Part shown: positions 10,938-33,396 of the stretch, piece by piece
How positions within the stretch are numbered: position 1 is the stretch's first letter
Layout: the number at the start of each line of letters is the position of its first letter
Source: a virus
Direction: 5' to 3' (one strand)
DNA: 64,000 bases
IMG/VR virus record: IMGVR_UViG_3300025000_000005
Location: 1 to 64,000 of that record
Notes under the pieces: model-generated
Told to the model about the DNA's origin: nothing
The model's database searches: none
What the model saw: only the letters and a program-made list of their open reading frames with translations
Made by a program: the position numbers and the translations under genes

Positions 10938-11765
10938 ATGTCAACAAGCAAGATAGAATGGCTGGCAGATAAAAGCGGTAAGCCCGGAGTCACCTGGAAT
11001 CCAATATCGGGATGTTCCCCTATAAGCCACGGCTGCCAAAACTGCTACGCGGCCCGTATGGCGAAGCGTCTTGCCGGCCGATGCGGTTACCCGGCAGATG
11101 ATCCGTTCCGGGTGACACTGCATCAGGATAAAATGAACGAACCGTTGCTATGGAAAAAGCCGAAGCGAATCTTTGTTTGCTCCATGGGGGACCTCTTCCA
11201 TGACAATGTGGCTGACAGCGCCCTCGACCAGATATTCCAGACCATATTCACGTCGATGCGACACACATTCATAGTGCTCACGAAACGGCCCGAGAGGATG
11301 CTTGACTATTTCAACCATTTTTTATGGGGGAAGATTCCGGATAATCTATGGGTCGGCGTAACGGCAGAGAATCAGGAATGGGCCGATAAGCGGATACCGA
11401 TTCTGATGGAGGTCCAGGCTAAGGTCCGTTTCGTTTCGGTGGAACCCATGCTCGGGCCGGTGGATTTAACGCCGTGGTTACCGCATTTCCTCGATTTTTC
11501 GTACACGACCGATCCGCCGCGGCTTGATTGGGTTATTGTCGGCGGGGAAAATGGGCATAGAGCAAGGCCGATGAACCTTGAATGGGTGAGGCTATTACGC
11601 GATCAGTGCGTTCAAGCCGGAACCCCGTTCTTCTTTAAAGGGTGGGGGGAATGGATGCCCGGAGACGAAAAGGACCGGGTCGATCACTTCAAGGTCGGGA
11701 AAAAGAGATCCGGTCGGATGCTCGACGGAAAAGAGTGGAATGAATACCCGGAAGGAGGCTCATGA
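10938..11765 (+). CDS. DUF5131 (phage Gp37/Gp68) family protein
   Basis: A 275-residue protein with typical family sequence: TWNPISGCSPISHGCQNCYA near the N-terminus (three Cys, radical-SAM-like spacing), FVCSMGDLFH, FIVLTKRPERM, FVSVEPMLGPVDL, and the C-terminal VIVGGENGHRARPM and FFFKGWGEW. The family is widespread in phages; it resembles the SPL/radical SAM fold but its substrate is not established to my knowledge. The last 4 bases overlap the next start. Confidence 0.85.
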   Translation: MSTSKIEWLADKSGKPGVTWNPISGCSPISHGCQNCYAARMAKRLAGRCGYPADDPFRVTLHQDKMNEPLLWKKPKRIFVCSMGDLFHDNVADSALDQIFQTIFTSMRHTFIVLTKRPERMLDYFNHFLWGKIPDNLWVGVTAENQEWADKRIPILMEVQAKVRFVSVEPMLGPVDLTPWLPHFLDFSYTTDPPRLDWVIVGGENGHRARPMNLEWVRLLRDQCVQAGTPFFFKGWGEWMPGDEKDRVDHFKVGKKRSGRMLDGKEWNEYPEGGS

Positions 11766-12477: not shown

Positions 12478-13097
12478 GTCTCATGAACTAACCCCACGAG
12501 CAGGGACTTGAAAGCCATCAGTAATTTCCTCCATCACGTCAATCCACTCAGTCTCATGTACAAACCCCACGAGCAGGGATTGAAAGCCTTTCCCCTTGTC
12601 CTTTATCGTTTCCGGTAACAAGTCTCATGAACAAACCCCATGAGCAGGGGATTGAAAGCACCTGGAATATTTCCGGAATAATTTGTTTGAGCCGGTCTCA
12701 GAAACGACTCCTCTGAGCAGGATACTGAAACTTGACCCATCATAAAACATCAAACAACGACAACACAAGTCTCAGAAACGACTCCTCTGAGCAGGATACT
12801 GAAACCGGATACCGGTGGGCAACTTTACAAAACGAGAAGTTGTCTCAGAAACGACTCCTCTGAGCAGGATACTGAAACGGGCGGAAACCAAAAGAGATAG
12901 TTGAAGCAGTTAAGGTCTCAGAAACGACTCCTCTGAGCAGGATACTGAAACGCCGGACAAAAAAAACAATCCGCACTTGCCCCAAAAGTCTCAGAAACGA
13001 CTCCTCTGAGCAGGATACTGAAACAGAATCTACCTTGAAAAAAATTGCGCCGCCGATGGGGTCTCAGAAACGACTCCTCTGAGCAGGATACTGAAAC
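12478..13097 (-). CRISPR. CRISPR array, nine repeats in two families
   Basis: Nine repeats of 37-38 bases separate eight spacers of 34-37 bases. Repeats start at 12478, 12551, 12622, 12695, 12769, 12842, 12915, 12988 and 13061. The last six are identical, beginning GTCTCAGAAACGACTCC and ending GATACTGAAAC on the plus strand. The first three form a second family (GTCTCATG...CC, ending TTGAAAGC). Each contains a 6-bp stem: CTCAGA/TCTGAG in the main family, CTCATG/CATGAG in the third repeat. In the first two repeats one stem position is A-C on plus but G-U on minus. Read on minus, the stem lies at the 3' end of the repeat next to the spacer, as in type V crRNAs, and the variable repeats become leader-distal. 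Minus-strand transcription is therefore preferred. Confidence 0.97.
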
Positions 13098-13251
13098 AGT
13101 ATACCTAAAAACCGTTTAAAAAGCAACACATTATCCATGGTTTTTCGAGAGGTCGGCATCCCGGAACCCACCATACCGCCGACCTCTCAAATAGAGCCCA
13201 CCATTTTTAAACAAAATTCAAAAATAACAACGGCATAAACTTTTCGAGCGC
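13098..13251 (-). promoter_or_regulatory. CRISPR leader candidate with a strong hairpin
   Basis: A 154-bp A/T-rich stretch between the effector stop and the first repeat. It has a perfect 11-bp inverted repeat, GAGAGGTCGGC at 13147-13157 and its complement at 13178-13188, with a 20-base loop. No T-run follows on either strand, so it is not a simple terminator. No anti-repeat was seen, so a tracrRNA is not supported. It could carry the array promoter or be a processing or integration element. Confidence 0.5.
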
Positions 13252-15051
13252 TCACGGGGTTTCCGGCGGAACATCACCGCTCGAATCGAGGTAGGCGGTC
13301 AAAAGATTCTTGGACGCCGCCCAATCCTGATCGTAGACCTTCCCGCACTTGCTGCACTGGACCATGATGTTCGTTTTCCGGCCCGGCTTGATAGTCCCGC
13401 CGCAAAACGGGCATGTTTTTGTGATATTCTTCGAGTCTAACTTGACGTGTTCCTTCCCGGCAGAGCGCATGGCCCGTATGGTTTCCGTCCTAAAAGTCGA
13501 AACGGAAGCGAGATCGCTCATTCTCCTGATATGGTCGTCATTGTCCGCGCCCTCCTCGGCTTTCTTCTTCCCCTTCGTTTTTCGGAGGTCAAAATCCTCC
13601 TGGATGACGACATCATATTCTTTTGAAAGTTTGAGCGCAATCTTCCGGTATTCGCACAATCGCCGGCCGCGGATACGGTCCGACAAATTAGCATGCCATT
13701 GCCATAAATGCTTGTCCTGTTTGCGCCACGCCTCAATTTTGTTAAACGCCTCTTCGTCTCCATGGAATCGAAACTCGGGCGGGTCCCCTTCGCGCCGGAA
13801 TCCTCTGCCACTCCACTGAATCGCTACCGATGCCAGTTGAGCCTCAGATTTCCAGCTCATCATCATTTTTGTCCTCTCCGATAGCCACGGCGGAACGATA
13901 TCGGCGTTTGCCTTTTTCCACTCATTGAACCATGCAACGGTTTCATTGAAATTTTTCTTCCGGATGCCTTGAAGCGATGCCGCCTTTTCGTTCGAGACGG
14001 TATATTCACTTCCCAGCAGGATCTCTTCTTCGACTCCCCGGCTGTCAAGCATATAGGCTATGCGTGTCGCCAGACCCTTGGCCCTCCATCCTATATTTAT
14101 GGCGACACAATGCCCGGTCCTTTCAAGCGGGACCGAACAATCTTCCCGGACGGTGACAGTTAAGGACCACACGAATTTATCGGCCAGCTTCGAAACATGT
14201 ATTGAAACAGACTTGATTTCGGCTGATTCCGGGATTGGTCTATGCATGACGATGGGTATTTCAAGCCAAATGGGAACGGTCTTTTTTTCTCCGGAACCTA
14301 TCCGGATTCGCGCTTTGGTCCTTTTCAACCGCCCTCGCTCTCCCCTGGACGGGTGAGTCCAAGCATCGGCTGGCAATCGGTCGATCTGAAAATAGTTGTT
14401 GGACCCAAGAAAAGCCTGAGTGATGTTCATGCCGCCTTGTATTTGGCATGTCCACCGGCCAACCCGCTCAAATCGGTGGAATTGAAGCTCGGGTCTTTTT
14501 TGGCCATCCTCTACTTGCGTCTTCATGATTGCCATTCGAGCCGTTTCGAATGAATCCATTACAGCCAGATAGTTGCCCCAATAAAGGCCGTTTTGGGCAT
14601 ATTCTTGACGAATGGCCACGTTCTTATCGTATCGCTCACCATCCAACTCGTGGAGCTGAGGCTTAACCGTGTCCTTCACGAATGCCCATATCTCTTTCTT
14701 TTCGGCTATCAGGGGTTTCTTTTGCGCCTTCAGTTCGACAATCTCGGCCTTGAGGTCGGAAGGCGTGCCTTTGATGCCGTCCTGGCGCCCCTTCTTGATC
14801 TCGGTTCGTATCTCTTCTGTCCTCACCTTGATATCCTCTATTTGCTTCCTCAGAACCGGCAACCGGGCATCGGCACCATCTCGAATAGCCCAGTATTTTT
14901 CCGTAAAAACCTTGTCGGCTTCCACGAGCGCATTCCAGAAACGGTTTTGAAGGCGAAGCTGCTCCATGGCGACCTCGCTTTCGACAGCCGTTTTTAGCGG
15001 GGATCCAAATTTGTAGACTCGGGCACTTTTGTCGGACTTTGACCTTTTCAT
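13252..15051 (-). CDS. cas12: Cas12m-like type V CRISPR effector with altered RuvC site
   Basis: A 599-residue protein translated from ATG 15051 behind AAGGAG. The N-terminal third is helical and charged (coiled stretch about 65-125). A LYWGNY motif (156-161) and FHRFERVGRW (191-200) resemble compact Cas12m (V-M, formerly V-U1) proteins as I remember them. The RuvC core follows: strand CVAINIGWR (315-323) where N319 stands in the position of the first catalytic Asp, VVIQEDFD with E485, then a zinc finger C547/C550/C566/C569, then YDQDWAASKN with D576. N319 is AAT, one base from GAT. Characterised Cas12m proteins bind target DNA and silence without cutting; N319 would make that likely here. 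The repeat-spacer array lies 154 bp downstream. A TnpB-like or other Cas12 subtype remains possible, but the adjacent array and size favour a CRISPR effector. Confidence 0.87.
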   Translation of the reverse strand: MKRSKSDKSARVYKFGSPLKTAVESEVAMEQLRLQNRFWNALVEADKVFTEKYWAIRDGADARLPVLRKQIEDIKVRTEEIRTEIKKGRQDGIKGTPSDLKAEIVELKAQKKPLIAEKKEIWAFVKDTVKPQLHELDGERYDKNVAIRQEYAQNGLYWGNYLAVMDSFETARMAIMKTQVEDGQKRPELQFHRFERVGRWTCQIQGGMNITQAFLGSNNYFQIDRLPADAWTHPSRGERGRLKRTKARIRIGSGEKKTVPIWLEIPIVMHRPIPESAEIKSVSIHVSKLADKFVWSLTVTVREDCSVPLERTGHCVAINIGWRAKGLATRIAYMLDSRGVEEEILLGSEYTVSNEKAASLQGIRKKNFNETVAWFNEWKKANADIVPPWLSERTKMMMSWKSEAQLASVAIQWSGRGFRREGDPPEFRFHGDEEAFNKIEAWRKQDKHLWQWHANLSDRIRGRRLCEYRKIALKLSKEYDVVIQEDFDLRKTKGKKKAEEGADNDDHIRRMSDLASVSTFRTETIRAMRSAGKEHVKLDSKNITKTCPFCGGTIKPGRKTNIMVQCSKCGKVYDQDWAASKNLLTAYLDSSGDVPPETP

Positions 15052-15060
15052 GCATTCTCC

Positions 15061-15591
15061 TTATTTTTTCTTGAACGTGGTCGACATCTGGAACAAATCA
15101 TCGGTGGAATAGGAATACATAGCTGCCAGATACAAATCGAAATCGTCTTGCGTGTATTCGGTTTCGAGTTGCTTCCGGACCGTGGCATGAAACAGCTTCA
15201 CGGCGTCCGGTTTCAATCCGACGATTTTCATCCCTTTTAGGATAGGCCCATCGAGCAGGTAAAACGTGATCGCGTTTTTCACCTGACCGTTTTCGGGTTC
15301 CATGTAGTCGTCTATCCGTGCCTGGTCCACAACCCGTGCGTTAAAGCTGCAATCGATCCGCCCGAACGGTTTCGGGAAATCGAAGATCCAGATGGCTATA
15401 GGAACCGGAGTTGAGGATTCAAGGTATCCGTACCACTGGAAGGATTTTTTGAACATCTGCCGCTCAGGGCGGGCAAGTTGGGGGAACTGAATCAGGCAGG
15501 TGAGCCCGCCGCCCCAAAGCTCCAGCGTAATTCCCTCGACTATCGGGACCGGACCGGGAAAGATTTCGCCTACTCTAAATGTGGTCAGCAT
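15061..15591 (-). CDS. Hypothetical protein upstream of cas12
   Basis: A 176-residue protein. The start is ATG 15591, preceded by AAAGGAG; a longer reading would run through most of the upstream gene. The N-terminal half is beta-rich with aromatic clusters (LELWGGGLTCLIQFPQ, FQWYGYLES), and the C-terminal half is helical. It ends 9 bases before the cas12 start, so it is co-translated with it. No known accessory Cas family is recognised. It could be an unrelated phage protein or a partner of the effector. Confidence 0.65.
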   Translation of the reverse strand: MLTTFRVGEIFPGPVPIVEGITLELWGGGLTCLIQFPQLARPERQMFKKSFQWYGYLESSTPVPIAIWIFDFPKPFGRIDCSFNARVVDQARIDDYMEPENGQVKNAITFYLLDGPILKGMKIVGLKPDAVKLFHATVRKQLETEYTQDDFDLYLAAMYSYSTDDLFQMSTTFKKK

Positions 15592-16048
15592 TATCGGTCT
15601 CCTTTCTGTCGCAACGCGCAACCATCTGCTCGTCAATTCCCTTCGAGTATGATGGCTTTTTCCCCGGGGAGCGATACCGGACCATCTCAAGATCATCTTG
15701 AGCTATTACCCACCGGCCGTCTTCATCCATTTTAGCCGGGAGGTCCTTGTTGCTTATTAAGGCATTGACTCGTCGCCGTGCCACTCCAAGCGCTTTGGCC
15801 GCCGCCGCCGTACCGATCGTTTTGATGGTGATGATATGGCCAAGTCCGAGTTCTGAAAATCTGAAAAAGAACTTTTCCGGCCATACCGTGGTTCCGGAAA
15901 ACATCCGGACCACTTCAGAGGAAGGGACCTCATCGGGGATATCCACAATGATATATGTGCTGGTTCGACCGTCAGTGCCCGGTTTTGCCAGTGGGTTTTG
16001 AAGCGTTGGCGCACCCCCGCAAACGACTTTGATTTTTAGTGACTTCAT
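15575..16048 (-). CDS. Excisionase/MerR-type HTH protein
   Basis: A 157-residue protein starting at ATG 16048, which overlaps the upstream stop (ATGA). The C-terminal region has a helix-turn-helix of the excisionase/MerR kind (GTAAAAKALGVARRRVNALI, about residues 80-99) with a winged tail KMDEDGRWVIAQDDLE. The N-terminal 70 residues are unrecognised. It overlaps the next gene by 17 bp. In this operon it may regulate transcription or assist recombination. Confidence 0.65.
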   Translation of the reverse strand: MKSLKIKVVCGGAPTLQNPLAKPGTDGRTSTYIIVDIPDEVPSSEVVRMFSGTTVWPEKFFFRFSELGLGHIITIKTIGTAAAAKALGVARRRVNALISNKDLPAKMDEDGRWVIAQDDLEMVRYRSPGKKPSYSKGIDEQMVARCDRKETDNADHI

Positions 16049-17247
16049 TTCGCCTCCCCGTCCGCTATCGCCGTGCATGCCCAAATCCTGCCTGACAGCT
16101 CCGGCGAAAAAGGAACCCGCCAGCCGATCGCCCCCGCGCCGCCCGTCCGGATATTGTTACGACTCCACATATCGCCGTCCGCCCCGTTGTTTTGGACATA
16201 CCAAATCCATTCCGGACCGATGACAAACCAATCACCGCCGCCATAGATGGTTCCCCTATCGGAAACACGGCCGCCTTCCGGGAAAATCGGTCCATCAGGA
16301 TACTCTCCGGATTTTTTGATCTCTTCGCTGATGGCACTGCGTTCTTTCTCAGCGGCTTTCTTTTGCTCACGTTCGGAAATTCGCAATCTCACCGGCGCCG
16401 ACTCCTCATCCGTGGCCGCCCTGCACCTGGCTGAAAAATAATATCCCTGATCATCTCCAACGCCGAACGAAAGGCCATCCTCCCTGAAATATTTTTTCGT
16501 GCAGGAAACTACATAGACGAATTCGGGATAATCTGGATATCGCTCAGGGGAGTTTTTCAGCACTTGCCCGACATGGTATTCTTCATATCCATATCCGGAA
16601 CCGCCGCCGATCCGGTAGGGCGCTTCCGCTTCCAGTTTTTCCGCCTGAACTTTGGCCGCGGAACAATCAACATGCTCAAGAAACTTCTCCCCGCCCTGGT
16701 ACCGGTAATGCGCTTCTTGCCCCGGGTCGATCCTGCTTTCGAACTTTGAACAATAACCGGTCCGTTCGGCGATCCAGCTTTTCCCGAAACTGGACTTTTG
16801 GGCCTTTGCCTCTTTGGCCTTTTGCGAAGCGGCCCTGGCATCTGCAACGGCAACCAGCATGCGGTTGTGCAGGTCCGCGTGATCCTCGACACCAAGTTCC
16901 TTCAGCTTGGAGACACCTTTTTCGTAGACATACCCCTCTGCGACCTTCGATTCGACAAACCCGAGCCACCGTTCAAGCTCTTTTCGGTTCGAGGCGCCCG
17001 CTGTTCCGGAAATCGACTTGATCCAGTTCTTTAAAACTGTCGTGAAGGATTTGGCCTTATCCAGGGGGACCACGAACAGCTTACGGTTTTCCCTGGCTTT
17101 GCCGTCCCAGTATCCGCCGAGTCGCTTTATCCGGCCGGCAAGATCCTCATCGTATCGGCCTTCGATAAGAATGTCGGATCCAAAAAGCTTGGTCGTGTAC
17201 CCGGTCGGGAGTTCGACTTTTTCTTCCCTATATATCCACATTGCCAT
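16045..17247 (-). CDS. Hypothetical protein
   Basis: A 400-residue protein behind AAAGGGAG. The first 75 residues look like a small alpha/beta domain that recurs at the N-terminus of phage and plasmid proteins (LFGSDILIEGRYDEDLAGRI, then KLFVVPLDKAKSF). A helical Ala/Lys-rich linker follows (about 130-150). The C-terminal part is Gly/Trp/Tyr-rich and beta-like, with several Cys in the middle. No enzyme motif is seen. Confidence 0.6.
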   Translation of the reverse strand: MAMWIYREEKVELPTGYTTKLFGSDILIEGRYDEDLAGRIKRLGGYWDGKARENRKLFVVPLDKAKSFTTVLKNWIKSISGTAGASNRKELERWLGFVESKVAEGYVYEKGVSKLKELGVEDHADLHNRMLVAVADARAASQKAKEAKAQKSSFGKSWIAERTGYCSKFESRIDPGQEAHYRYQGGEKFLEHVDCSAAKVQAEKLEAEAPYRIGGGSGYGYEEYHVGQVLKNSPERYPDYPEFVYVVSCTKKYFREDGLSFGVGDDQGYYFSARCRAATDEESAPVRLRISEREQKKAAEKERSAISEEIKKSGEYPDGPIFPEGGRVSDRGTIYGGGDWFVIGPEWIWYVQNNGADGDMWSRNNIRTGGAGAIGWRVPFSPELSGRIWACTAIADGEAK

Positions 17248-19544: not shown

Positions 19545-20150
19545 ATGAAAAACGGATCTCAGCTTGCTCTCAACAGGCCACAAAAAGGGGATATAATCTC
19601 CGTTTCACCGGTCCGGAGCTTAAGGGATATTTCCCATATCAAGAAGAACCTCTGGCGGCACCCCCGGAATTATGCCCTGTTCGTGGTCGGGATCAATACC
19701 AGCTTCCGAGCGTCCGAACTGGTATCGATCCGGGTCGGGGACGTGAAGCACCTCCGGCCTATGGATTCGTTCAAGCTCAGGGAGAAAAAAACCGGCAAGG
19801 TGCGGGAAATCCATTTTAACCAAGCGTGCGTTCTTGCCGTCCGCAAGCTGCTCTCATCCAGGAAATATTCGGATGATGATTTTCTATTCCGTAGCGAAAG
19901 GACCGGAGGCGCCCTGACCGTATCGGCAGTCCACAGGTTGGTCAAGTCCTGGTGCCGGGATCTTAACCTGCTCGGCAATTTTGGCAGCCACACTCTCCGA
20001 AAAACGTGGGGGTATCATCAGCACTCGACCTACGGAGTGAGTCTGGCAAGCTTGATGAAATGTTTCGGTCATAGCGATTCGGCAATAACGCTACGGTATC
20101 TCTGCATTTCGGATGCCGACCTACAAAGGGTCTACTCGAATGAATTGTGA
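19545..20150 (+). CDS. Minimal tyrosine recombinase
   Basis: A 201-residue protein behind GAGGGGTG. Catalytic-domain residues are present in order: R55 in FRASEL, the beta-hairpin Lys near KKTGK, H149 and R152 in HTLRKT, H176 in FGHSDS, and Y185 in TLRYL. At 201 residues it is little more than a catalytic domain; there is no arm-binding or full core-binding domain. Such short recombinases occur on plasmids. Located directly before parA, it most likely resolves plasmid multimers, although a role in integration is possible. Confidence 0.85.
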   Translation: MKNGSQLALNRPQKGDIISVSPVRSLRDISHIKKNLWRHPRNYALFVVGINTSFRASELVSIRVGDVKHLRPMDSFKLREKKTGKVREIHFNQACVLAVRKLLSSRKYSDDDFLFRSERTGGALTVSAVHRLVKSWCRDLNLLGNFGSHTLRKTWGYHQHSTYGVSLASLMKCFGHSDSAITLRYLCISDADLQRVYSNEL

Positions 20151-27143: not shown

Positions 27144-27156
27144 CTTTAAATCTTTA
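27144..27156 (-). repeat. Recurrent motif CTTTAAATCTTTA, copy 1
   Basis: A 13-base A/T-rich motif that recurs at 38147-38159 and 60238-60250, each at a gene boundary. Here it overlaps the stop codon of the giant helicase gene. On the minus strand it reads TAAAGATTTAAAG. It may be a phage regulatory element. Confidence 0.5.
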
Positions 27157-30100
27157 CGACATTATGGCGAAAATATCCTTCAAGTCGGTTTTCGAGTCGA
27201 TATACCAGTAGGCGCCGTTACTAAGTTCGCCAGCGCTCCCGGCGAAGAACTGAGCCCCATACCGAGCTTTCAGAATTTCCTTCGTGCGGTATAGCACTCC
27301 TTGCTTGGCGTTTCTATCCAAAAAAAACCACTTAGAGAATGCCGCAACCGCGATATTCTTGTATTTGCCTTGAAGTGTCACGTCCCGAGAGTTGATCTTC
27401 ACCGTAATACCGAGCTGCGCGAAAGCGTTTTTAACCTCTTCCGGAATCTCTTTGTAATTTGGGTGCTGCTTTATCGCTTCAGCGGCTTTTCGGTCCGCTT
27501 CGGCTTTTTCTTTTGCCATCTGGTCAAGAAGCGTGTCAAGCTGTTCGCGTCTGCACTTGTTGGCAATGGTCTCTATATCGCTTCTGTTATCCCCCAGGGC
27601 GGACGCCGCCACGGTAAGGTCGTTTTGGAATCCGTATCCGCCAAGGATGCTATGGATTTCGGACGGGCTGGCCTGGTTGACTTTATCCCCAAGCTTATCA
27701 TCAAGAAAATCGTTCACAAATTTCGCGTAAAATTCACGAATCTGTGTTTCGGTTGCCACCGTCCCGTACTGCATGACGGTTACCTTCCAGTCGGATCCAA
27801 AAACGGTGGCCACGATCCCGGTAACGGTAGAATCCACATAGTCATAAGCCGTCTTCATCTTGGCCGCCTCAAGATACGCCTCGCTCAGATTCTTTCGATA
27901 CGTTTCGTTTGTCGGTTCAGGAAAAACGATATCAGCCTTATTTTCTATATAATAATTGTCCTGAAATGCGAAACCGTCGCCTTTCCGAACGAAAAATTTT
28001 CCATAGATCTTGATATCGGCTATGTTTTCGAAAAATGTCTGTTTATCAATATCAGCACTGCCGACCAGATCAATATACCGGATCTCCTCGGACAGGAGCT
28101 TTTTGAGGGCCAACTCCTTTTCAGAGTACGAAACCTTGATCGCATCGTCCGGGAAATCAGTTAGCAGGATTACCGTTTTGCTCGACCCGTTGATCCTGAT
28201 ATATTCGGTCTCAATGAGACGATCAGATCCCATAATTACATCATACGTGAAAGCCTTTTGTGGTGACTGGAATGCGTCCGTAAGCTTGAAAATCACCATG
28301 CCGCGGCCGGTGCGCCGTTCATAGACATCGCCAGCAGCATAAACCTTTCCTGAAAGGGAGCATATCGCCTTTTCGGGATGATCCAAAACCGAGGCATCAA
28401 AAGGAAGTTCCCCTTTTTTGCCTTTGGCCGTCAGCACATTCATGGATTGCTGCTTCTGCGCTTCGAGATGGACACGTTCCCGCTCAAAAGCTGCATCCAG
28501 GTCATCAAGATCGGCCTTGGCTTTTACGAGGGACTTTTTACCATCATTTATTCGCTTGGCCAGTTTTTTCTTTTCCGGATCCTCGTCATCCATGGCGAGG
28601 CCTTTTTTCTTAAGCCGCTCAATCGTTTCGGTCAGGTTCTCAACTTTGGTGGTTAAATCCTGTTTCCGCTTAACCTTCGCCTCCCCGAGCCCGGAGAGCG
28701 CCTCGGTAACATTCCCAAGAAGTTGGAGCATATTGACAAGCCGCTTTCTCTCCCGTTCATCCCGTTCCGTATTTTTCTGAGCGAGTTTTTCAAGGCGCCG
28801 CTTCTTCGCCTCTTCCGGATTGTCGGCCAGCAAATCCAACATGTCATCGTCCGAAACAACATTCCCGTTGTCCGCCTCAATGTCGGTGCCGGTCAGGAGG
28901 TCCCGTATCCAGCTCGCCTTTCGCTTGAGGAGGTCCAGCCGGTAAAAGTCGAACGAATTTTTCCCGAGGTAATAATAAATTTTGACGCTACTCGACGTGT
29001 TTCCCTGGCGGACACCGCGGCCGTTTCTCTGTTGAATCGATGCAGGTGTCCAGGGAAGCGTCAGGTGGTGAATCGCCGTGGTGCCCTTTTGCAGGTTTAC
29101 ACCGACCTCCGCCTTCTTATTTGCAATGACAAGCTTTATTTTCCCGGAATTGTAGTTGTCGGAGATCTTTTGCAATTTGGTCCCGGACGCTTCGTCCGCG
29201 TTGATAATCGCAATGACGTCACGCGATAGCGGCACGTGGTGGGACAAGATCCGTTTCAGCTTCCCGTGCTGTGATTTTTCTTCCGTGAAAACGACCTGCT
29301 TGCCATTAGCCTCAAGGTGGGCGCGGACATTTTCAACGAGTTTCGCGTATTTCGGAGGCAGGGGGTGAGATACGTCATTTTCATCGATACCAACGACTGC
29401 GAGCTTTGAAATTACATGCGCCTCAAGCTCTTCGAAAGTTGTGAGGCAATAAGTATCGCCTTTTGTTTCAAGCTTGTTAACGACATCGACATCGACATCG
29501 ACATCAATCGTTTTTCCTTCTTCGTCTTTCGCCTTGCGGGAAACCGTTTTAGGGAGTCCGGAAACTATCTTGTCGACCTTTTCCTTATCGGCCAGCTTGA
29601 AATAAAACGTCATGGTATGGGTATAGAGGTCCATGTCCGTGGTAACGCGGTCCATGTTTCTGATTATGGAAAACATGCTGATTTTTGATCCGGGTTTGGA
29701 CGCTTCCTTCGCATCCTCCCTGAGATCCGCATAAACGTCCCCCTGCACTTCTGAAAGATCAACCTCTTCATTCGCCTCATCGCTTCCGGGGAGTTCAAGA
29801 CCTACATCATCCGCTGTTCGATAGAGCACGTATTTATGGAAAAGGTTCCGGAGACCATCAAGTTTTTTAAACCCGACAAGGCCATCCTTGGTTTTGATTT
29901 CACCGGAAACCATCACCTTGTCAACGGATTCTATCTTTCCGAAAGCTCTAACAAAATCATCAACGGTATAGACTCCGAACCGTTCGAATTCCTCCATCGG
30001 CGCGACGAGCGATAGTACATTGTAGATTTCAAGGGGGGAGTTGGTAACCGGGGTCGCCGAAAGGGGATACACGCCCTTCCCGCCGAATCTTTCTTTCATG

Positions 30101-33100
30101 TACGCGGATTTGAGCTGCATATCAATTGCCCTCTGAGCGCTTTTAACAACCGAAAGGTAGGCAACGTCGCTGGTTTTCTCCCCAGATTTGAACGAATTCT
30201 TGTACTCGTGGGCCTCATCTATGATCACATTGGTAAAACCCATATCCTCAAAATAGGGAAGCTCACCCTTTTTGCGCGTTCCCTCATCCGAATACTTGGC
30301 TTCCGCCCGAAGTCCGGCCTTATCGTCATCATAGGTTTTCTTTTTTGATCCGCCGTCATCCTCAGCCACACCGTTTGCGCTTAAGGACTTAGCCATCTTG
30401 TCGCTGATCAAAGAGCGGTCCGACATCTTCTTGGCATACCTCGCTTTCGTGTCCGGCCGCATCGGTATTGACCCGAATTTCGTGCTTGTCATCACCACAA
30501 GGGACTTGTTTGTGTTAGGTATTTCCCACATCTTGGCCCATATGTCATCAGGGTCTTTTTTGGTTATAAGGAGAGTTTGCTTCTCAACCTCGTTCGTGAA
30601 TTTGTTGATTTTAGGGTTTCCAAACTCATCCTGGACAATTTCCTGCCGAGGCTTCCCGTTTTTGTCCAGCCTTGCCTCTATGCCAACGAAAAGTACGTCA
30701 TCAATGTCGGTCACGAACTTATTTGTCTCATGATACCAGTTATTCAGGACCGCATCCGGAACGACTATACACGTCTTTTTAGTCCGCCCCATCTGTTTGT
30801 TGTAGAGGTGCAGGGCAATGGCCGAAAGGGTTTTCCCCAAGCCGACATCATCCGCCAGAATCCCGCCGCCCTCTTCTGAGAGCCTACGAATTGCCGAATA
30901 TTGGTACCCGTGGGGTTTAATTCGGTCAGAGAAACCCTCTATATGCAAGGGCGAATCATCGTATTCGTGGGGGATGAAAGCATTGAATTTGCGGTTATAA
31001 ACGGCCGCGACCTGCGCCATGTCCGGATGCTGCTGCATCCAGGCATTGAAGTTTTCAGTCGTTGCCTTTATCGCTTGCGTGTATGCCTCTCTTCGTTCTT
31101 GTGCGCCTTCTCCAGTCGGTGCGACATTATCCCCATTGAGAAACTTTAAGAACTGATTTTTGAATCCGGGCCCCTCGATACCGATCCATTTGCCGAACGG
31201 GTTGTCAAAATCCTCAACGAACTTGTTTGCGGTTATCGTTTCACCTGTTACCGAATCCTCCTTCTCAACCTCTGCATCAGCCCCGAAGCTGGCATGCGGG
31301 TATCCGTTGGCCCTCAAAAACTCCACCAGGTATTTTTTAGGAAACCACTTTTCCTGCAATCCCAGATCGATATCTTCAGGTGGAGTCAGCTTTAATTTCG
31401 ACTGAATGGTGTCGATTTGCTGCTGCCACTTTTCCTTGAGGCGGGAATCCTCCTCATCGGCCATCACTTGCGTTAGCTCGACCATCTTGGGGTACACATC
31501 GCCGGAGGCATACCGTCCCATAGGCATGATCATGCCGCTCGGCGCAATGGCAATACCATCGGCAGATGCCAGATCCCCCAGGTTCTCTATCGCCATTTTT
31601 CCGGTATAGATCTTCTTTACATCCTCAAGTTCAATATTTTGCATGCCTTCCCGGACATAAAGGTGCTCAACAATCGATTGGATATTCGTGGAGTCGAAGG
31701 CCGTTCGATCCTCGGATAGCGTCCCAGCCAGCAGATCGGAAAAAACGCCTTTCTGATCGACCGAACTCAAAAACATCCCGAATGCGCGGGAGCTTTCACC
31801 GGTCAAGACGAGCCACTTACACCCTTTTGGATGCCCGTAGCGCTCGATCTCTGCCGCCACCATGCTTTGCAAGCGGTCTCTTTCCATGTCGTCAGAACTG
31901 GTTCTCAGCCTGCCTATGAGTCCGCCGATAACGGTCCCCCGGAAGGCCTGCTCCCTAAACTTGTCATCGGTCTGGCTCATGGAAAATAAAACGGCATCGG
32001 TATGGAGGCTCGACAAGAGTTCCGGCCATGTCTTGTAAATGGCGAAGGCCTGCTCAGCCGTTAACTGCAATGCTCCATCCGGGCTCGAAAGAATCGCTTT
32101 CAGGTCGTCAAGTGTCGCGGCGCCATATTTTTTCGCATCAAGCGCCATTCCGGAATCTGCCTGGATGGTTGCGACCCACCTCCCCCCGATGAATTCACAC
32201 TGCCGACCATTAATGATTCGGTGATCGCCCTCAACATAGGTTGGCGGATCCGCCGGCGCGACGTCCAGCATGTCCCAATCGATTCTTGAGTCGAACCTGA
32301 CCGCTATTTTCTGCTTCAGCGCGGCCGGGTCGATATCCCCGTCAACTACCTCCCGGCTCCATCGGTCGCCGTCGATTTTCGGGACGTAGGTCCCATGGAT
32401 AAACTGCCGCCCCTCGCCCTGCCAGTACGACCCGTTTACGAATTCACCCCAAACCACTTTTGCATCTTGCAAGGTCTTGAAATCTATATTGTCTATCTTT
32501 TCAATCAGATCGGATGGATGCTTTTTAAAAACGATAATATCGACAACCGTGTCCGTTCCCTGAGCCCGGAATGTCTTTGATGGCAATTTATGAGCGCCCA
32601 GGAACTCGGCCTTTTTCGAAACGGCTATCCTGAATTGGTTCCATCGATCCGATTTATTGGTCAGGATATTCGTGGGGACTACCAGGCACGCCAAACCGCC
32701 AGGGCGGGTCTTGTCCAATGCGCGGAGGATGAAATACCGCTCGATTCGTTTCTCGTTTTTATAGGCCGGGTCGTCATGGATCGATTTGCCGCGGGCATCC
32801 CCGAAAGGAACGTTCCCTATTACCGAATCAAAATGATTATCATCGGTTTTCCCTACGAGAGACTCGAAACTTCCGGTCCTTATCGAATCTTCAGGGTTAA
32901 AAAGCTGCGCTATTTTGGATCCAACCGGATCTATGTCCGTACCAGTCACAACCAGGCCGGCCGGTTTTGTGGACGGGAAAACGCCCGCACCCGTGCAAGG
33001 GTCCAAAATATTCCCGGCCGTAATGCCATACCCCTTCAAAATGTCCCACATTCCCTCGGCTACCGGAGTCGGCGTGTAATATTCGAACTGTGAGTTTTCG

Positions 33101-33396
33101 GTAAGCCCGCCGCGGCCGGAATACTGCTTCAGAACGGCCGCGTCTTCATCCGACAGGTCGGCCGGGTCATGGACACGATCGAGGATGTCTCGCGCCATGG
33201 CGTTCAGGTTTTCTCTGGCTTTGATACCACGGACCTTGAGCCCATAATCAGACGTGTCGGGCTTTGAATCGGATGGAATACCCAGAATGGCCTTGAATGC
33301 CTGCGCCAGTTCATCGAATGTTTTTGCGCTTAAAATAGCGGAATTGCCTGGGAGTGCTTTTTCGAGGACCATATCGAATAATTGTTGCTGTGGCAT
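27154..33396 (-). CDS. DarB-like giant methylase-helicase (antirestriction)
   Basis: A 2080-residue protein. An N-terminal N6-adenine methylase domain has DPCTGAGVF (about 132-140) and IGNVPFGD (about 193-199, where NVPF stands for NPPY). A superfamily 2 helicase follows: DDVGLGKT near 850, DEAHEYKN near 1060, LSATPVTNSPLEIYNVL, and QQRNGRGVRQGN near 1457. A charged coiled region and unrecognised C-terminal domains complete it. This domain order is that of the N12-class methylase-helicases (COG4646) and P1 DarB, which travels with phage DNA and shields it from type I restriction in cis. Its position among head genes fits packaging into the virion. Confidence 0.82.
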   Translation of the reverse strand: MPQQQLFDMVLEKALPGNSAILSAKTFDELAQAFKAILGIPSDSKPDTSDYGLKVRGIKARENLNAMARDILDRVHDPADLSDEDAAVLKQYSGRGGLTENSQFEYYTPTPVAEGMWDILKGYGITAGNILDPCTGAGVFPSTKPAGLVVTGTDIDPVGSKIAQLFNPEDSIRTGSFESLVGKTDDNHFDSVIGNVPFGDARGKSIHDDPAYKNEKRIERYFILRALDKTRPGGLACLVVPTNILTNKSDRWNQFRIAVSKKAEFLGAHKLPSKTFRAQGTDTVVDIIVFKKHPSDLIEKIDNIDFKTLQDAKVVWGEFVNGSYWQGEGRQFIHGTYVPKIDGDRWSREVVDGDIDPAALKQKIAVRFDSRIDWDMLDVAPADPPTYVEGDHRIINGRQCEFIGGRWVATIQADSGMALDAKKYGAATLDDLKAILSSPDGALQLTAEQAFAIYKTWPELLSSLHTDAVLFSMSQTDDKFREQAFRGTVIGGLIGRLRTSSDDMERDRLQSMVAAEIERYGHPKGCKWLVLTGESSRAFGMFLSSVDQKGVFSDLLAGTLSEDRTAFDSTNIQSIVEHLYVREGMQNIELEDVKKIYTGKMAIENLGDLASADGIAIAPSGMIMPMGRYASGDVYPKMVELTQVMADEEDSRLKEKWQQQIDTIQSKLKLTPPEDIDLGLQEKWFPKKYLVEFLRANGYPHASFGADAEVEKEDSVTGETITANKFVEDFDNPFGKWIGIEGPGFKNQFLKFLNGDNVAPTGEGAQERREAYTQAIKATTENFNAWMQQHPDMAQVAAVYNRKFNAFIPHEYDDSPLHIEGFSDRIKPHGYQYSAIRRLSEEGGGILADDVGLGKTLSAIALHLYNKQMGRTKKTCIVVPDAVLNNWYHETNKFVTDIDDVLFVGIEARLDKNGKPRQEIVQDEFGNPKINKFTNEVEKQTLLITKKDPDDIWAKMWEIPNTNKSLVVMTSTKFGSIPMRPDTKARYAKKMSDRSLISDKMAKSLSANGVAEDDGGSKKKTYDDDKAGLRAEAKYSDEGTRKKGELPYFEDMGFTNVIIDEAHEYKNSFKSGEKTSDVAYLSVVKSAQRAIDMQLKSAYMKERFGGKGVYPLSATPVTNSPLEIYNVLSLVAPMEEFERFGVYTVDDFVRAFGKIESVDKVMVSGEIKTKDGLVGFKKLDGLRNLFHKYVLYRTADDVGLELPGSDEANEEVDLSEVQGDVYADLREDAKEASKPGSKISMFSIIRNMDRVTTDMDLYTHTMTFYFKLADKEKVDKIVSGLPKTVSRKAKDEEGKTIDVDVDVDVVNKLETKGDTYCLTTFEELEAHVISKLAVVGIDENDVSHPLPPKYAKLVENVRAHLEANGKQVVFTEEKSQHGKLKRILSHHVPLSRDVIAIINADEASGTKLQKISDNYNSGKIKLVIANKKAEVGVNLQKGTTAIHHLTLPWTPASIQQRNGRGVRQGNTSSSVKIYYYLGKNSFDFYRLDLLKRKASWIRDLLTGTDIEADNGNVVSDDDMLDLLADNPEEAKKRRLEKLAQKNTERDERERKRLVNMLQLLGNVTEALSGLGEAKVKRKQDLTTKVENLTETIERLKKKGLAMDDEDPEKKKLAKRINDGKKSLVKAKADLDDLDAAFERERVHLEAQKQQSMNVLTAKGKKGELPFDASVLDHPEKAICSLSGKVYAAGDVYERRTGRGMVIFKLTDAFQSPQKAFTYDVIMGSDRLIETEYIRINGSSKTVILLTDFPDDAIKVSYSEKELALKKLLSEEIRYIDLVGSADIDKQTFFENIADIKIYGKFFVRKGDGFAFQDNYYIENKADIVFPEPTNETYRKNLSEAYLEAAKMKTAYDYVDSTVTGIVATVFGSDWKVTVMQYGTVATETQIREFYAKFVNDFLDDKLGDKVNQASPSEIHSILGGYGFQNDLTVAASALGDNRSDIETIANKCRREQLDTLLDQMAKEKAEADRKAAEAIKQHPNYKEIPEEVKNAFAQLGITVKINSRDVTLQGKYKNIAVAAFSKWFFLDRNAKQGVLYRTKEILKARYGAQFFAGSAGELSNGAYWYIDSKTDLKDIFAIMS

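What the first reader, a model, noticed from the sequence alone, without database searches (positions are those of the whole stretch)
12478..13097. Two repeat families with covarying stems in one array
The first three repeats and the last six differ at many bases, yet both keep a 6-bp hairpin (CTCATG/CATGAG and CTCAGA/TCTGAG). Paired changes at two stem positions show selection for structure, not random decay. In the first two repeats the altered pair is A-C on plus but G-U on minus. This both fixes the likely transcribed strand and suggests the array was assembled from two sources or holds two crRNA types.
Basis: seen in the sequence. Interest (0 to 1): 0.75.

Follow-up and report, generated by a model that had tools for sequence, protein, structure and literature searches.

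The report
Phage Cas12m CRISPR array with evolving repeats
A tailed bacterial virus carries its own small CRISPR system (Cas12m) whose two kinds of repeat look different but fold into the same guide-RNA shape, so they are old and new versions of one repeat rather than two separate systems.

Summary
Window 12478-13097 holds nine repeats, three divergent "A" units and six identical "B" units. The stems CTCATG/CATGAG and CTCAGA/TCTGAG differ by two fully compensated base pairs. The window is part of a 90.8-kb tailed-phage record. The gene beside the array (13252-15051, minus) encodes Cas12m, the type V-M effector. Read on the minus strand, both repeat types fit the published Cas12m crRNA: a pseudoknot. 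A second helix (S1: CCC/GGG in A, UCC/GGA in B) was missed and also covaries. Across 20 V-M repeats the nine pairs are 98% formed, six with double changes. A conserved leader element places the leader at the B end, so A is the old end. A leaderless three-repeat array elsewhere in the record carries A/B intermediates, and the nearest Cas12m relative has A-like repeats. Two sources or two crRNA types are therefore not needed. This is a new, divergent phage member of a known kind. Its targets are unknown.

The parts
12478..12515 (-). Repeat 9 of the crRNA strand (A type, 38 nt), oldest end; S2 CUCGUG/CAUGAG with a G·U pair
12551..12587 (-). Repeat 8 (A type, 37 nt); S2 with a G·U pair
12622..12659 (-). 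Repeat 7 (A type, 38 nt): GCTTTCAATCCCCTGCTCATGGGGTTTGTTCATGAGAC; S1 CCC/GGG, S2 CUCAUG/CAUGAG
12695..12731 (-). Repeat 6 (B type, 37 nt): GTTTCAGTATCCTGCTCAGAGGAGTCGTTTCTGAGAC; S1 UCC/GGA, S2 CUCAGA/UCUGAG
12769..12805 (-). Repeat 5 (B type)
12842..12878 (-). Repeat 4 (B type)
12915..12951 (-). Repeat 3 (B type)
12988..13024 (-). Repeat 2 (B type)
13061..13097 (-). Repeat 1 (B type), leader-proximal
13098..13126 (-). Possible weak array promoter TTGCTT-17-TATACT abutting repeat 1 (inference; the promoter scan did not report it)
   Evidence: sequence; scan
13145..13149 (-). Conserved leader element CTCGA (consensus YTCG[AC]nAAa), starting 88-91 nt upstream of the 3' end of the first repeat in 11/11 V-M loci
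13144..13191 (.). 14-bp inverted repeat in the leader, ending in the conserved element on the minus strand
13252..15051 (-). cas12m, 599 aa, type V-M effector; RuvC residues N319-E485-D576, with the RuvC-I aspartate replaced by Asn

Best explanation
This is a phage-encoded type V-M CRISPR-Cas locus: cas12m followed, on the same (minus) strand, by a leader and a nine-repeat array. Transcription runs leftwards from the leader between 13098 and 13252, so B units are leader-proximal and recent and A units are leader-distal and old. Each repeat forms one crRNA scaffold, a pseudoknot of S1 (CCC/GGG in A, UCC/GGA in B) and S2 (CUCAUG/CAUGAG in A, CUCAGA/UCUGAG in B) ending in AC next to the guide. 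The single Cas12m would load guides from both types and bind target DNA without cutting it, blocking transcription or replication of competing elements. A and B are successive versions of one repeat lineage kept functional by compensatory changes. Shown: gene identity, array anatomy, covariation, strand, leader position, intermediates. Inferred: loading of both types by Cas12m, no cutting, and the role in competition.
For: Cas12m: PADLOC Cas12u1 (V-U1, now V-M) E 4.5e-109; PDB Cas12m 23vw E 1.3e-76 over 572 residues. Architecture: PMC10442227 gives G(-23)·A(-2), C(-22)..C(-17) paired with G(-8)..G(-3), and C(-1). The minus reading fits with one extra loop base; the plus reading does not. Covariation. 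Strand: 28 G·U against 1 A·C, and array downstream of cas12m on the same strand in the relatives examined. Leader element in 11/11 loci, against a maximum of 4/11 in 2000 shuffles. Intermediates at record 70961-71140: repeat a2_2 differs from B at 5 core positions, 4 of them two compensated S2 pairs. The nearest Cas12m relative (L061, 34% identity, tree support 84/92) has the repeat closest to A3 (27/30), whereas B's best outside match is 24/30. RuvC-I Asn.
Against: No convincing protospacer, so no PAM and no target. No RNA data. The A-to-B step is abrupt within array 1. The + strand of A ends in ATTGAAAGC, a motif used elsewhere to call the opposite strand (PMC4869251). No Cas1 in the record, so how the B end grew is unexplained. 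An N-E-D RuvC combination is not among the eight tested variants in PMC11013384, so loss of cutting is only inferred. Relatives found through a repeat pattern were selected for T opposite R at one S2 pair, which biases that pair; own, L010, L012, L013 and L015 were found without the pattern.
Confidence: 0.87

Rival explanations
1. The array was assembled by recombination from two sources: an older A array and a B array acquired from another V-M element sharing the effector.
For: The A-to-B switch is abrupt and the six B copies are identical. Repeats in a second mini-array mix A and B traits.
Against: The mixed repeat a2_2 keeps each helix whole (S1 B-like, S2 A-like) although the helix arms interleave, so one crossover cannot make it. 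No outside viral contig carries B, and the nearest outside repeats are A-like.
Confidence: 0.12
2. Two crRNA types serve two effectors, for example A for a host Cas protein and B for the phage Cas12m.
For: A3 and B differ at 9 of 30 core positions, and phage mini-arrays using host Cas proteins are known (PMC11656645).
Against: A has every Cas12m crRNA element and resembles the repeat beside the nearest Cas12m. Only one Cas12m is encoded in the record.
Confidence: 0.05
3. A units are dead relics with no function; only B units make working guides.
For: Leader-distal repeats often decay (PMC4869251), and the A copies differ from one another.
Against: Both helices and the AC end are intact in all three A units. 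Their period and spacer lengths are normal.
Confidence: 0.2
4. The array is transcribed on the plus strand.
For: A ends in ATTGAAAGC on plus, a known orientation motif.
Against: 28:1 G·U to A·C on the minus reading, leader element position, cas12m orientation and the published Cas12m crRNA.
Confidence: 0.03

Closest known systems
Type V-M (former V-U1) CRISPR-Cas12m, e.g. Cas12m2 (PMC10442227) and GoCas12m/MsCas12m (PMC11013384)
   Same: Effector homology over its whole length, single-effector locus, array downstream, pseudoknot crRNA ending in AC, substituted RuvC site
   Different: About 21-34% identity to the relatives compared here; N-E-D RuvC residues; two repeat versions in one array; carried by a tailed phage rather than a plasmid; a second leaderless mini-array
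Cas12m locus of virus Rctr197k (KX853510)
   Same: Phage-borne cas12m with its array directly downstream, homogeneous repeats near the gene and divergent ones far from it
   Different: Different repeat sequence; Cas12m about 28% identical; RuvC-I Asp retained
Desulfosudis oleivorans MAG Cas12m locus (L061)
   Same: Closest effector found; repeats nearly identical to A type (27/30 to A3)
   Different: 34% protein identity; RuvC-I Asp retained; no B-type repeat seen
Viral CRISPR mini-arrays and single repeat units (PMC11656645, PMC6858448)
   Same: The three-repeat orphan array at record 70961-71140 is small, virus-borne and away from any cas gene
   Different: Its repeats match the phage's own system rather than a known host array

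Membership tests
Type V-M CRISPR-Cas (Cas12m) | Cas12m-family effector | tested here: met
   PADLOC Cas12u1 E 4.5e-109 over residues 10-586; PDB Cas12m E 1.3e-76
Type V-M CRISPR-Cas (Cas12m) | Adjacent CRISPR array | tested here: met
   Nine repeats 154 bp downstream of cas12m, same strand
Type V-M CRISPR-Cas (Cas12m) | Repeat forms the Cas12m pseudoknot scaffold | tested here: met
   Fits the geometry in PMC10442227; covariation
Type V-M CRISPR-Cas (Cas12m) | No tracrRNA | tested here: inconclusive
   Repeat search of the record found only the two arrays; not a test of RNA
Type V-M CRISPR-Cas (Cas12m) | RuvC site that does not cut double-stranded DNA | tested here: inconclusive
   RuvC-I Asp replaced by Asn, N-E-D; activity not testable here
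Type V-M CRISPR-Cas (Cas12m) | 5' PAM (TTN-like) | tested here: inconclusive
   No reliable protospacer
Type V-M CRISPR-Cas (Cas12m) | Self-processing of pre-crRNA | not testable with these tools
   Needs RNA experiments
CRISPR array holding two crRNA types for two effectors | Second effector or repeat of another subtype | tested here: not met
   A and B share one architecture; one Cas12m in the record; other effector types were not searched over the whole record

The most novel reading that the evidence does not exclude
V-M systems on phages keep, away from the main array, leaderless guide units that are under separate selection (here the orphan three-repeat array), and the main array carries a fixed leader element used for spacer uptake or guide processing without Cas1-Cas2 of their own.
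Probability: 0.15. Interest if true: 0.7.

Novelty: new member of a known kind. Interest (0 to 1): 0.4.

Why it matters
It gives a natural series of crRNA scaffolds in one genome that differ by compensated pairs, which can test how far Cas12m tolerates scaffold change. It corrects the strand for V-M arrays, where a common orientation motif would mislead. It adds a divergent phage-borne Cas12m with an N-E-D active site and a conserved leader element shared by V-M loci, for which no Cas1 adaptation gene is present in this record.

Tried and rejected
Spacer targets: self-matches are at chance level. Concatenated spacers found nothing convincing in phages or plasmids. Four 20-nt guide scans of viral contigs gave one weak result, a 23-nt match of guide 3 in related marine contigs with only 25 of 36 positions overall. 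Thermodynamic folding is not informative for a pseudoknot. The B pattern and a degenerate A pattern are absent from other viral contigs. No Cas1 in the record. Array 2 guides matching the cas12m operon, as an autoregulatory guide would, were looked for and not found. A search of 291 genomes of the Desulfosudis class found the A-like pattern only in the known one. The genes directly upstream (211 and 400 aa) have no homologue in the other loci compared (some loci may have been missing from that comparison because of a file-reading problem).

Full report
What is there. The window is the first 64 kb of a 90,778-bp virus record with myovirus-type genes: portal, tail sheath, tape measure, baseplate. 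At 12478-13097 lie nine repeats with 34-37-nt spacers. The first three on the plus strand (A) are 38/37/38 nt and differ slightly from one another; the last six (B) are identical.

The neighbour. The gene at 13252-15051 (minus) is a 599-aa Cas12m: PADLOC Cas12u1, E 4.5e-109; Cas12m structure 23vw, E 1.3e-76. Its RuvC residues are N319, E485 and D576. The RuvC-I aspartate is replaced, as in some known Cas12m. PMC11013384 lists D-E-D, H-D-D and N-D-D variants, so N-E-D is a new combination relative to those eight, and probably non-cutting (inference).

Strand and fold. In the Cas12m2 structure (PMC10442227) the repeat ends C(-1), A(-2) pairs non-canonically with G(-23), and C(-22)..C(-17) pairs with G(-8)..G(-3) as a pseudoknot stacked on a short stem. 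The minus-strand repeats of this array fit with one extra loop base: G(-24)·A(-2), CUCAGA(-23..-18) with UCUGAG(-8..-3), and an inner stem UCC/GGA (B) or CCC/GGG (A). The plus reading does not fit.

Comparison. Cas12m loci from plasmids and a phage, genomes and viral contigs gave 54 distinct units. On 20 representatives the nine pairs are 98.3% formed, six pairs have double changes, and the covariation score is 0.535 against 0.130 +/- 0.026 in shuffles, none of 500 reaching it; sliding the partners drops pairing to at most 45.6%. Part of the set was found with a pattern that fixes T opposite R at that pair, so the ratio there is biased, but within-array variants were collected without it. Three of the six S2 pairs are fixed by the unit search itself and say nothing.

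Leader. YTCG[AC]nAAa starts 88-91 nt before the 3' end of the first repeat in all 11 loci tested, including this one (13145-13149), against at most 4 of 11 in 2000 shuffles. It lies on the cas12m side. Hence B is leader-proximal and A leader-distal. Distal divergence is also seen in other V-M arrays such as L010, L015, L064 and L076 and is a general feature of arrays (PMC4869251). The plus strand of A ends in ATTGAAAGC, a motif used to assign direction, which would mis-orient this array.

One lineage, not two. A second array of three repeats lies at record 70961-71140, outside the window, on the other strand, without the leader element. Repeat a2_1 is A-like. Repeat a2_2 has B-like S1 and A-like S2 and differs from B at five core positions, four of which are two compensated S2 pairs. 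Repeat a2_3 is similar but has a broken S2 end. These bridge A and B, and because the helix arms interleave a single crossover cannot produce a2_2. The closest effector found (L061, 34% identity, tree support 84/92) has repeats closest to A3 (27/30), whereas B's best outside match is 24/30. B is therefore most likely the derived form. Two sources remain possible but are not required.

Function. V-M effectors bind DNA without cutting and silence it, and V-M is enriched in plasmids and some prophages (PMC11656645, PMC11013384). The likely role is competition with other mobile elements or control of host genes. No target was found, so this step is inference. No Cas1 was found in the record; how the B end grew is open.

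Verdict. The hairpin is re-read as a pseudoknot helix, and the two-source or two-type reading is not supported. This is a new, divergent phage member of type V-M.

Noticed in passing
record 70961-71140 (L007 6961-7140), outside the window: Second, leaderless three-repeat array with repeats intermediate between A and B, between two convergent genes, one of them a tail protein.
   Followed up: yes
13144-13191 and equivalent leaders in L010, L012, L013, L015, L019, L023, L064, L076, L080, L081: Conserved leader element YTCG[AC]nAAa at a fixed distance from the first repeat in 11/11 V-M loci, in some overlapping the cas12m 3' end; in a few loci it looks like the loop of a hairpin.
   Followed up: partly
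L075 about 450-487; L077 (minus strand); L078 about 827-864 and 2181-2218: Solitary V-M-type repeats far from the array, or in a 96-kb viral record with no Cas12m match; their role is unknown and some may be chance.
   Followed up: partly
12879-12914: The first 23 nt of this guide match related marine viral contigs (L055-L057) exactly, flank AACTT; weak, only 25 of 36 positions overall.
   Followed up: partly
15061-15696 and 16045-17247 (minus): Two proteins of unknown function just upstream of cas12m, on the same strand; the first has a match to a PHROG of unknown function.
   Followed up: partly
10938-11765 (+): DUF5131 protein (E 8e-90, also PADLOC PDC-M41B) near the far end of the array.
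   Followed up: no
27154-33396 (minus): 2080-aa protein matching phage methyltransferase/helicase and DarB-like antirestriction families.
   Followed up: no
19545-20150 (+): Phage integrase-family protein, suggesting a possibly temperate phage.
   Followed up: no
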